Below, piece by piece: positions 35,091 through 37,026 of a stretch of 44,680 nt of DNA. Both the position numbers and the translations under genes were made by a program. The stretch is from assembly GCA_029781795.1 (NCBI GenBank), contig JAKOWB010000212.1, forward strand, positions 1 through 44,680. The letters are read 5' to 3'. Within the stretch, counting starts at the first letter, position 1. Every line of letters begins with the position of its first letter. Under the pieces are notes generated by a model. The model was not told the origin of the DNA, did no database searches, and was given only the letters and a program-made list of their open reading frames with translations. Source of the stretch: Pseudomonadota bacterium (GTDB taxonomy: Bacteria > Pseudomonadota > Alphaproteobacteria > Kiloniellales > JACOMY01).

Positions 35091-36437
35091 ATGCAGCAGC
35101 AGGACGAGATTTCGGATGGTAGCGCGGCCGCCAGCGTAGCGACGCCGCTGGCCCGGATCCACGCGCTGCTGCGGGAGCCGCAGAGGTTCTTGCATGAAAT
35201 CCTGGCCGAGGTACTGCAGGTGCTGCAGTTCCTTGCCATGGGGCAGGTCGCTCAGGTCGATGCCGACGATGCCGTGGAGCGACTTCTGCGAGCCGCCATC
35301 ATTTGCGATGCCGCTGTCCTGGATCGCTTGCTGGAAGACCCAAGAACCTTGGGACTGTCGCCGGGGCTGCGGCGCGCCCTGGACTGCCTGCGGCAGCTGC
35401 GCGCCGGCCAGTTGGCAGCGGCGGAGGCCAGCCTGCCGACCCTCATGGCGGCCCATGCCTGCGGGACCGAACTCATGCTGGCGGCCCGCCTGCTGCTGCG
35501 GGCCGGCCGCGTGGCCGATGCCATCGCGGTGCTGAAGCGGGCCGCGGCGGACCCTGTGCAGCAGGACGCGGAAGCGATCCTCAACCTGCTGACGGCCCTC
35601 CTGATCCGGCGCGCGCGGCCGGGTGAGGCGGATACTGTCGGGCCGCCCAGCGAGCTGACGGTTTGCACGGCGGTGCGCGACGAGGCGCCGGACCTGGAGG
35701 AGTGGGTCGCCTATCACAGCATGATCGGCGTCGAGCGCTTCCGCATCTATGAGAACGGCTCGGTTGACGGCACGGCCGAGCTGCTGGAATCGCTGGCGCA
35801 CCGCTATCCGATCGAGATCGTGCCCTGGCCGCATCAGCCGGCCAACCTGACGGCGTTCCAGGACGGGCTGGTGGCCGAGATGGCGCGCAGCACCTGGCTC
35901 GCCTGCCTCGACGCCGACGAATTCCTGGTGCCGGCGGAGGGGAACGATCTGCGCACGCTCCTTCGGCGCGTGCCCGCGGAGGCGGCGGCCCTGGTGCTCA
36001 ACTGGCGGGTCTTCGGTTCCTCCGGCCGAAAGCACCGGTCAGGAGAGCCGACACTGGCGGCCTATCGCCGGCGGGCGGCCGACGACTTCGGGCCCAACCG
36101 TCACATCAAGAGCATCCTGCGGCCGCGGTCCGCGATCCTGGCCATGACCACCCACGAGTTCCTTACGGTGGGGCCACAGGTCAACGCGCGGCTGGAGCCC
36201 GTCTCCCCGCTGGCCGGTCAACTGGTCCCGCCCTGCTTCGACGGGGCCTGGATCAACCACTACCTGCTGCGCTCCCGCGACGACTTCCTGCGCAAGCGGG
36301 CGCGCGGGCGGCCCGAGCAGGGCGGACGGCGAGACTTCGACAAGGGATTCTTCGAGGCGCATGACCGCAACGAGGTGCGCGACCGGTCGGTCGAGCGCTT
36401 CCTGCCAGGCCTGCGCGAACGCCTTGCGCAGGCCTAG
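35091..36437 (+). CDS. GT92-like glycosyltransferase with N-terminal helical domain
   Basis: This 448-residue cytoplasmic protein has two parts. Residues 1-185 are Ala/Leu-rich and helical, perhaps TPR-like, with no recognised family. Residues 188-445 form a GT-A fold of the GT92/DUF23 or Glyco_tranf_2_4 type: TVCTAVRDEAPDLEEWVAYH (190-209), FRIYENGSVDGTAELL, the metal-binding CLDADEFLVP (272-281), HIKSI and INHYLLRSRDDF. The donor and acceptor are unknown. It is the first gene of the island and is convergent with the three small peptide genes; its stop TAG overlaps the last peptide's stop by 2 bases within one CTAG. Confidence 0.8.
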   Translation: MQQQDEISDGSAAASVATPLARIHALLREPQRFLHEILAEVLQVLQFLAMGQVAQVDADDAVERLLRAAIICDAAVLDRLLEDPRTLGLSPGLRRALDCLRQLRAGQLAAAEASLPTLMAAHACGTELMLAARLLLRAGRVADAIAVLKRAAADPVQQDAEAILNLLTALLIRRARPGEADTVGPPSELTVCTAVRDEAPDLEEWVAYHSMIGVERFRIYENGSVDGTAELLESLAHRYPIEIVPWPHQPANLTAFQDGLVAEMARSTWLACLDADEFLVPAEGNDLRTLLRRVPAEAAALVLNWRVFGSSGRKHRSGEPTLAAYRRRAADDFGPNRHIKSILRPRSAILAMTTHEFLTVGPQVNARLEPVSPLAGQLVPPCFDGAWINHYLLRSRDDFLRKRARGRPEQGGRRDFDKGFFEAHDRNEVRDRSVERFLPGLRERLAQA

Positions 36438-36598
36438 GCGAGGGCCGCGGTCGACATCGACAGCATCAGCGGCACGACGACCGGCAGGGTCGCTGTCTTG
36501 GCCAGGCGCTCCACGAAGGCGCGGCGCGTTTCCGGTTCCATGCCACCACTGTTTCCCGCCGGCGCCGAGGCGTCGGCGGATTTATCCTGATCGGTCAT
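36434..36598 (-). CDS. Small peptide 3 of a tandem family (54 residues), putative modified-peptide precursor
   Basis: The peptide starts MTDQDKSADASAPAGNSGG and continues with ETRRAFVERLAKTATLPVVV, ending STAALA. It has a polar, low-complexity N-terminus, the conserved TRRAF(I/V)ERLA block at residues 24-33, then a hydrophobic C-terminal half. AGGAG lies 7 bases before the ATG. It is the last of three paralogous genes and ends in the same CTAG as the convergent GT92 gene. No known family is recognised. The ETRRAFVE segment also resembles a twin-arginine signal, but nothing follows the hydrophobic stretch. Confidence 0.72.
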   Translation of the reverse strand: MTDQDKSADASAPAGNSGGMEPETRRAFVERLAKTATLPVVVPLMLSMSTAALA

Positions 36599-36677
36599 CG
36601 CGCTGCTCCTGGTACGTGCTGGCGAACACTAGTGCAGCGCGACGGCGCCGGGGAAGAGCATAGCGTTTCAGAACCGT

Positions 36678-36836
36678 TCAAACGTAGGCGACGGCGGTCC
36701 TGGCGCCGGAGAACAGGAGCGGGAGCACCAGCGGCACCGCCGAGGTCTTCGCCAGGCGTTCGATGAAGGCACGCCGTGTCTCGCTCGTCGACAGCGGCCG
36801 CGCAACCTGCCCTGGGGCGGCGAGTGGGCCCTTCAT
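36678..36836 (-). CDS. Small peptide 2 of a tandem family (52 residues), putative modified-peptide precursor
   Basis: The peptide starts MKGPLAAPGQVARPLSTS and continues with ETRRAFIERLAKTSAVPLVL, ending ARTAVAYV. The conserved TRRAFIERLA block falls at residues 20-29, at the same distance from the start as in peptide 1. The second half is hydrophobic. GAGG lies 7 bases before the ATG. It is separated from its neighbours by about 31 and 79 bases on the same strand. Conservation of the block and the tail while the N-terminus diverges indicates real, selected coding sequence. Function unknown. Confidence 0.75.
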   Translation of the reverse strand: MKGPLAAPGQVARPLSTSETRRAFIERLAKTSAVPLVLPLLFSGARTAVAYV

Positions 36837-36867
36837 GTTCCTGCCTCAGCGGAAGCGTTTATGGGCG

Positions 36868-37026
36868 TCAGTAGGCAAGCGCCTCTGACCGCGGATGGGT
36901 CAGAAGCAGGGGCAGGACGACCGGCGCGGCCGTTGTCAGCGCCAGCCGCTCGATGAAGGCGCGGCGTGTTTGCGCCGCTTTCGGCGCGACGGCCAGGTCC
37001 AACGCTGCCTGATTCTGCTCGGTCAT
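36868..37026 (-). CDS. Small peptide 1 of a tandem family (52 residues), putative modified-peptide precursor
   Basis: The peptide starts MTEQNQAALDLAVAPKAA and continues with QTRRAFIERLALTTAAPVVL, ending RSEALAY. TRRAFIERLA is at residues 20-29. GAGAGG lies a few bases before the ATG at 37026. It is the promoter-proximal member, divergent from the PqqD-domain operon across 175 bases. A longer in-frame start exists 46 codons upstream but lacks any similarity to the other two copies. All three share a polar leader-like first third and a hydrophobic last half ending in small residues and Tyr. Confidence 0.75.
   Translation of the reverse strand: MTEQNQAALDLAVAPKAAQTRRAFIERLALTTAAPVVLPLLLTHPRSEALAY

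What the first reader, a model, noticed from the sequence alone, without database searches (positions are those of the whole stretch)
36434..37026. Three tandem paralogous genes for 52-54 residue peptides
Translated on the minus strand, three adjacent genes encode peptides aligned by (E/Q)TRRAF(I/V)ERLA(K/L)T, then P(L/V)V(L/V)PL and a short tail ending AVAYV, EALAY or AALA. The first 18-22 residues differ between copies, while the block and hydrophobic half are kept. Each gene has a good ribosome-binding site 7-8 bases before its ATG. Tandem small paralogues next to a PqqD-domain gene are what multi-precursor RiPP loci look like. I know of no described family with this motif.
Basis: seen in the sequence. 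Interest (0 to 1): 0.9.

Follow-up and report, generated by a model that had tools for sequence, protein, structure and literature searches.

The report
Cargo-less export signals beside peptide-modifying enzymes
Three neighbouring bacterial genes each encode a peptide of about 50 residues that resembles a protein-export (twin-arginine) signal with nothing attached, and they lie beside genes for a predicted peptide-binding protein, kinase and sugar-transferring enzymes that would likely modify them, a pairing also found in two other bacteria.

Summary
The three tandem peptides are real and paralogous. A profile of them and one homologue reaches 19 small proteins in public data. The conserved part is the C-terminal half: a twin-arginine block of fixed length (28-30 residues from RR to the stop in 19 of 19) with a hydrophobic stretch and A-x-A 0-2 residues before the stop; the 17-52 residues before RR vary. 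It looks like a Tat signal without cargo, although the TAT profile matches only 2 of 19, below its cut-off. The gene set (peptide, PqqD, GT2, HprK-like, NTP_transf_5) recurs in Prosthecomicrobium pneumaticum and, with a divergent peptide, in an Opitutaceae MAG. Beside other HprK/NTP_transf_5 pairs a twin-arginine small protein with a tail is frequent, not universal (strict criterion: 9 of 15 loci; 1 of the 6 fetched after it was fixed). Best reading: substrates of a RiPP-like phospho-glycosylation cassette, reduced to leader only, probably membrane-inserted or exported by Tat; modification and export are inferred.

The parts
36868..37026 (-). peptide gene 1 (52 aa, ends EALAY); first of the tandem
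   Evidence: weak TIGR01409 TAT match 14.7 bits vs cut-off 16.7
36678..36836 (-). peptide gene 2 (52 aa, ends AVAYV)
36434..36598 (-). peptide gene 3 (54 aa, ends AALA)
36407..36435 (.). 10-bp perfect inverted repeat with 9 nt between the arms, at the convergent ends of peptide gene 3 and the GT92-like gene
37202..37738 (+). tandem PqqD/RRE-type protein (178 aa), divergent from the peptides
   Evidence: PF05402 77.4 bits; TIGR04353 36.1 bits over cut-off 35; model pLDDT 86.8, best PDB match TbiB1 bound to a leader peptide
37749..38804 (+). family-2 glycosyltransferase
   Evidence: PF00535 80.4 bits
38797..39657 (+). HprK-like kinase with P-loop GPPFAGKST; overlaps both neighbours
   Evidence: weak TIGR04352 34.6 bits, cut-off 200; HPr kinase 3tqf by profile E 1.8e-5; PEPCK/HprK fold matches (model pLDDT only 66.9)
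39654..40727 (+). NTP_transf_5 nucleotidyltransferase-like protein
   Evidence: PF14907 86.7 bits
40655..41755 (+). second family-2 glycosyltransferase (whole ORF; the ATG at 40724, in an ATGA overlap with the previous stop, is the likelier start)
   Evidence: PF00535 80.7 bits
35091..36437 (+). GT92/GT2-like glycosyltransferase, convergent with the peptides; probably not part of the conserved set
   Evidence: PF01697 59.7 bits; no tblastn match at E 1e-3 in L038 or L039

Best explanation
The three genes encode paralogous peptides made of a variable N-terminal stretch and a fixed-length, twin-arginine, signal-like block that ends 0-2 residues after A-x-A, and they are likely the substrates of the adjacent cassette, which is predicted to bind them and to add phosphate and sugar near the C terminus before probable Tat-dependent export or membrane insertion. 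Inferred order of steps: the tandem RRE-type (PqqD) protein binds the peptide; the HprK-like kinase phosphorylates a hydroxyl residue in the conserved tail; the NTP_transf_5 protein puts a sugar on that phosphate, as described for pseudomycoidin; the two GT2 enzymes extend it; the RR/hydrophobic block takes the product into or across the membrane. Shown here: the peptides, their family, the gene set and its recurrence. Inferred: binding, modification, site, export, product.
For: Conservation: RR to stop is 28, 29 or 30 residues in 19 of 19 while the part before RR ranges from 17 to 52; after the last A-[LVF]-A there are 0, 1 or 2 residues (8, 9 and 2 of 19). Same gene set and order in Prosthecomicrobium pneumaticum (L038), and the gene set with one GT2 and a divergent SRREFVLRL...SASVY peptide in an Opitutaceae MAG (L039) (profile match of the L039 peptide P 4.7e-5). 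Peptide and PqqD hits share longest-contig lengths 143,443 and 1,517. HprK loci: 14 twin-arginine small-protein candidates within 3 kb (175,912 bases) against 3 in the remaining 316,190 bases of the same 28 loci; 15 loci fetched afterwards gave 2 in 92,241 against 0 in 163,712. PqqD model fits leader-bound RREs. The genome has TatC. Published precedent, passages read in PMC8498205: HPr-kinase homologues phosphorylate the C-terminal Ser of lasso precursors, and a nucleotidyltransferase adds hexoses to that phosphate.
Against: TIGR01409 matches only 2 of 19 members, best 14.7 bits against 16.7. 8 of 19 end exactly at ALA, so signal peptidase would have nothing to release. The C-terminal residue is Ser or Tyr in only 10 of 19 (A in 8, V in 1), so the lasso rule of a C-terminal Ser does not hold. 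The association is partial: 12 of 28 first HprK loci, 1 of 15 later ones, and 0 of the five distant PqqD loci L040-L044, which also carry weak HprK matches; with HprK and NTP_transf_5 together 9 of 15, only 1 of the 6 fetched after the criterion was set. Five other NTP_transf_5 loci of the same genome have none. Tailed relatives also occur without HprK nearby (3 of 6 genomes; two S. meliloti plasmid loci). The HprK-like protein fails the TIGR04352 cut-off. No chemistry was tested.
Confidence: 0.5

Rival explanations
1. Ordinary RiPP precursors: the RR block is only the recognition leader for the RRE protein and has nothing to do with Tat; the hydrophobic C-terminal segment is the core, cut off and exported by another route.
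For: Tandem RRE-type protein, kinase, NTase and GTs adjacent; TAT profile below cut-off; weak match of two tailed relatives to a radical-SAM target-peptide model (TIGR04117, E 0.014 and 0.026, 15.5 and 14.6 bits against a cut-off of 50).
Against: The supposed core is conserved across genomes instead of variable; no protease or transporter among the nine proteins scanned around the peptides; relatives in sister loci have signal-like RR/hydrophobic/A-x-A followed directly by a tail.
Confidence: 0.22
2. Small membrane peptides that are not modified at all (structural or regulatory), while the enzymes act on a glycan or another substrate and are neighbours for co-regulation.
For: No hydroxyl residue is strictly invariant in the tail; an alginate-lyase-family gene beside the peptide in L038 and polysaccharide-type genes near L046 suggest a surface-glycan setting.
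Against: RRE/PqqD-type proteins are known to bind peptides, and peptide plus PqqD are retained together in L038 and L039.
Confidence: 0.2
3. Decayed remnants of larger Tat substrates that lost their mature part.
For: Tailed proteins of the same layout exist in sister loci.
Against: The stop lies at a fixed distance (28-30 residues) from RR in 19 of 19; two of three paralogue pairs show dN/dS of 0.12-0.18; each of the three tail types has a counterpart on another contig.
Confidence: 0.05

Closest known systems
Lasso peptide tailoring by HPr-kinase homologue and nucleotidyltransferase (paeninodin, pseudomycoidin; PMC8498205, passages read)
   Same: Small precursor, PqqD-type B1/RRE, HprK-like kinase, nucleotidyltransferase in one locus.
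   Different: No lasso cyclase or B2 protease among the cassette proteins scanned; precursor is twin-arginine-like with conserved C terminus; tandem RRE; GT2 enzymes.
HPr-rel-A system (NCBIfam TIGR04352/TIGR04353)
   Same: PqqD protein passes TIGR04353; a kinase with a weak match to TIGR04352; a Sphingomonas locus carries PqqD, kinase A, NTase and a twin-arginine small protein.
   Different: The window's kinase is far below the TIGR04352 cut-off; its peptides have no tail.
Twin-arginine (Tat) signal peptides
   Same: (S/T)RRxF(V/I), uncharged hydrophobic segment, A-x-A.
   Different: At most two residues follow the A-x-A; profile score below cut-off; a mostly acidic 17-52 residue stretch before RR.
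PQQ and mycofactocin precursors (recalled, not tested by a search)
   Same: Short peptide with PqqD-type partner; for mycofactocin also a GT2.
   Different: No radical SAM protein among the nine scanned; the C-terminal Val-Tyr of mycofactocin precursors (recalled) is not conserved here.

Membership tests
RiPP with RRE | RRE/PqqD domain partner beside the peptide genes | tested here: met
   PF05402 and TIGR04353; fold match to TbiB1, lasso B1, PqqD
RiPP with RRE | Post-translational modification of the peptide | not testable with these tools
   needs mass spectrometry
RiPP with RRE | Conserved leader, variable core | tested here: not met
   conserved part is the C-terminal ~30 residues
Lasso peptide | Lasso cyclase and B2 protease in the cluster | tested here: not met
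   none among the nine proteins scanned between 35091 and 41755; a Transglut_core3 gene exists on another contig, C417
Lasso peptide | C-terminal Ser as kinase site | tested here: not met
   last residue Ser in 5 of 19; none of the window's three
HPr-rel-A system | PqqD protein over TIGR04353 cut-off | tested here: met
   36.1 vs 35 bits
HPr-rel-A system | Kinase over TIGR04352 cut-off | tested here: not met
   34.6 vs 200 bits
Tat signal peptide | Match to the TAT signal model over its cut-off | tested here: not met
   2 of 19 members match at all, best 14.7 vs 16.7 bits
Tat signal peptide | Twin arginine, hydrophobic segment without charge, A-x-A | tested here: met
   RR in 19 of 19; best 13-residue stretches with Kyte-Doolittle mean 1.68-2.08; A-[LVF]-A in 19 of 19
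Tat signal peptide | Transport by TatABC | not testable with these tools
   TatC present in the genome; transport itself needs an assay

The most novel reading that the evidence does not exclude
Gene-encoded peptide carriers for glycans: the cargo-less twin-arginine peptides act as membrane anchors on whose C-terminal hydroxyl a phosphate-linked glycan is started by the kinase and NTP_transf_5 enzyme and lengthened by the two GT2 enzymes, so that Tat inserts a glycan on a peptide stem in place of a lipid carrier.
Probability: 0.08. Interest if true: 0.88.

Novelty: new variant of a known kind. Interest (0 to 1): 0.6.

Why it matters
If right, a peptide-modifying cassette has dispensed with a separate core and works on something that is all signal peptide, linking RiPP-type recognition (RRE) with the Tat pathway. 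The wider pattern, twin-arginine small proteins beside HprK/NTP_transf_5 genes in Rhizobiaceae, sphingomonads and others, offers a testable substrate for kinases that are in part annotated only as hypothetical protein. Seven literature searches on these gene names or on Tat plus RiPP showed no title or abstract start that describes it; three of them returned nothing, two returned more papers than were listed (20 of 353, 12 of 62), and only three papers were opened, by term search. So absence from print is not shown.

Tried and rejected
Peptide scan of the GTDB contigs: 30 pattern matches, 0 confirmed. Viral contigs: 30 pattern matches, 0 confirmed, so no sign of phage origin. PqqD on plasmids: no match. 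Pfam at E up to 1: 0 of 19 peptides match anything. Hits of the four-row peptide profile at E up to 0.5 in 45 of 61 genomes of the order: of 29 loci read, L016 and L031 read as twin-arginine signals and L012, L021, L028 as ArsR-like helices by eye, most others as unrelated frames (for minus-strand hits the printed frame was the wrong strand, so those rows say nothing). Profile comparison with tailed relatives (A7) is weak (probability 13%, P 0.0022), so homology between window peptides and tailed ones is not claimed, only the same layout.

Weaknesses of the neighbour count. The strict criterion was written after reading the peptides (window, L038, L039, L046, L047, L049, L050, L085, L089, L094, L101, L102); L048 and L087 were new, and only L104-L118 and L164-L168 are blind. 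One of the 14 near candidates (L085, minus strand) looks like an artefact. The criterion misses evident cases (L049, L085 plus strand, L102, L115; seen). Five of the six loci that I ran as controls (L040-L044; 0 candidates in 91,062 bases with L051) turned out to carry weak HprK matches (E 3.5e-6 to 2.9e-4) beside their PqqD genes, and no NTP_transf_5 match: they are negative HprK loci, not independent controls. The 9 of 15 count takes loci with an HprK match and an A6-profile or PF14907 match to NTP_transf_5 within 3 kb: positive window, L038, L039, L046, L047, L048, L050, L089, L105; negative L097, L106, L107, L115, L164, L165. L113 (about 3.6 kb apart) and L049 (NTase only by annotation) were left out, and the A6 profile of three sequences may miss other NTases.

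Full report
What is there. On the minus strand three genes follow each other: 36868-37026, 36678-36836 and 36434-36598, for 52, 52 and 54 residues. They share TRRAF(I/V)ERLA(K/L)T and P(V/L)V(L/V)PL. They are divergent from a plus-strand set: tandem PqqD (37202-37738), GT2 (37749-38804), HprK-like (38797-39657), NTP_transf_5 (39654-40727), GT2 (ORF 40655-41755, likely start 40724), the last four overlapping end to start. A GT92-like gene (35091-36437) converges with the last peptide gene; a perfect 10-bp inverted repeat lies at the junction.

A family. One peptide used alone finds one homologue (67% identity); four together find 19 proteins in about 5.8 billion, three of them the window's own. 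Twelve positions are invariant in the 19-row alignment (T, R, R, F, L, A, T, P, P, L, A, A). From RR to the stop there are 28, 29 or 30 residues (8, 7, 4 of 19); before RR 17 to 52. After the last A-[LVF]-A come 0, 1 or 2 residues (8, 9, 2 of 19); the last residue is A 8, Y 5, S 5, V 1. The part before RR has net negative charge in 18 of 19. Three tail types recur: SMSTAALA-like, LLFS...AVAY(V/S) (P0003 and P0014), and LLL(T/A)HPRS(E/G)ALAY (P0001 and P0002). P0009 and P0014 have the same longest-contig length, 10,721, so copies of different type probably sit together elsewhere too.

Rarity. The peptide profile is found in 1 of 385 genomes of the class and the PqqD profile in 1 of 299 of the phylum, the window's own in both. 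The scan of GTDB species contigs with the PqqD profile gave 7 loci: L038 and L039 carry the gene set; the other five (L040-L044) have a distant PqqD and a weak HprK match but no NTP_transf_5 match and no such peptide.

Recurrence of the cassette. L038, Prosthecomicrobium pneumaticum DSM 16268: peptide (-) 9700-9873, tandem PqqD 9992-10540, GT2 10555-11604, HprK-like 11601-12434, NTP_transf_5 12431-13507, second GT2 matching at 13510-14499, in the window's order. The peptide (ARRALVERLGK...APLMLSMSSAALAY) matches the profile at E 2.2e-16. L039, Opitutaceae MAG, 4.6-kb contig: single PqqD, GT2, HprK-like, NTP_transf_5 on the other strand, and next to it a 51-residue ORF with SRREFVLRL and the end SASVY; its profile match is weak by hmmsearch (full-sequence E 0.25) and P 4.7e-5 by hhalign. 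HprK-like proteins are 63% and 36% identical to the window's, NTP_transf_5 51% and 36%. The GT92-like protein has no match in either locus. In protein data, P0008 and PqqD P0023 share the longest-contig length 143,443, and P0019 and P0026 share 1,517: 2 of the 16 non-window peptides; for the rest the output does not tell.

Wider pattern. The HprK profile is found in 31 of 372 genomes of the class. I fetched 20 stretches and, with window, L038, L039 and five plasmid loci (5 of the 14 plasmid hits), looked for small ORFs with RRx(F/L/M)(L/I/V/M), an uncharged hydrophobic stretch and A-x-A. 12 of 28 loci had one within 3 kb of HprK: 14 candidates in 175,912 bases, against 3 in the other 316,190 bases. 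Examples are Ensifer L047, S. meliloti L050, Novosphingobium L048, Parasedimentitalea L046 and L089, where the block is followed by a tail, often Gly/Ser/Asn-rich. In the 15 further stretches fetched after the criterion was set, 1 had candidates (two tandem copies, L105): 2 in 92,241 bases against 0 in 163,712. L040-L044 and L051 had none in 91,062 bases, though L040-L044 carry weak HprK matches. Five other NTP_transf_5 loci of the window's genome had none. Of loci with HprK and NTP_transf_5 within 3 kb, 9 of 15 are positive; of the 6 blind ones 1, and L115 would be a second by a looser look. In the other direction, a profile of tailed peptides hits 6 of 240 genomes; three have HprK nearby (G244, G146, G291) and three do not in the stretches read (G138, G173, G181), and copies on S. 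meliloti 1021 and LMB1 plasmids stand without an HprK or NTase match in 12 kb.

Partners. The tandem PqqD model (pLDDT 86.8) matches TbiB1 with leader peptide (TM 0.86 on the target), lasso B1 and PqqD. The HprK-like model (pLDDT 66.9 from 3 sequences) matches PEPCK and HPr kinase, and the sequence profile matches HPr kinase 3tqf (E 1.8e-5). By PMC8498205 (passages read), HPr-kinase homologues phosphorylate the C-terminal Ser of lasso precursors with little demand on the rest of the peptide, proteobacterial ones several times over, and a nucleotidyltransferase adds one or two hexoses to that phosphate in pseudomycoidin. The window's peptides lack a C-terminal Ser, so the site here would have to be another hydroxyl in the tail.

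Tat. The layout, and signal-like relatives in sister loci, argue for Tat; the TAT model does not reach its cut-off, and 8 of 19 end exactly at ALA. TatC is in the genome. I therefore call the peptides Tat-like, not Tat signals.

Selection. Over 22 codons: 36868/36678 dS 1.02, dN 0.12; 36678/36434 dS 1.03, dN 0.19; 36868/36434 dS 0.29, dN 0.26; against L038 dN 0.29-0.47, dS 0.84-2.26. The stretch is short and the third pair shows no constraint.

Site. In 19 of 29 relatives whose gltX locus was read, comEC lies within 1.5 kb of gltX; in the window the whole cassette lies between them, so it looks like an insertion into a core block.

Verdict. Observation confirmed; RiPP-like reading partly supported. 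The most likely account is a substrate family of a phospho-glycosylating, RRE-guided cassette that consists of its twin-arginine leader alone; the chemistry and transport remain to be shown.

Noticed in passing
window 35091-41755: Cassette plus GT92-like gene sits between gltX and comEC, which are neighbours (within 1.5 kb) in 19 of 29 relatives examined.
   Followed up: yes
L165 (own genome, contig C417): The same genome has a Transglut_core3 gene with NTP_transf_5 and an HprK-like gene, which looks like a lasso-type locus; six NTP_transf_5 loci in all.
   Followed up: partly
L158 9427-10488 (-): Three tandem twin-arginine small proteins with Cys-rich tails and no HprK match in the 20 kb read.
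   Followed up: no
L087 1747-1935 (-): 62-aa protein beside HprK and PqqD: a twin-arginine block (RRRELLKRLAVVAVSGYIVPTAILMYPRNANA) with a 13-residue tail.
   Followed up: no
L094, L101, L102: RRRLLKTGAAAVPVIISLQSGTAWA-type small proteins beside HprK homologues.
   Followed up: no
L038 8427-9617: Alginate-lyase-family gene next to the peptide gene (PF05426).
   Followed up: no
L040-L044: PqqD and weak HprK matches side by side in an Elusimicrobia MAG, Thermomonas, a Rhodobacteraceae MAG, Oceanicola and a Pseudomonadota MAG, without NTP_transf_5 or twin-arginine peptides.
   Followed up: no
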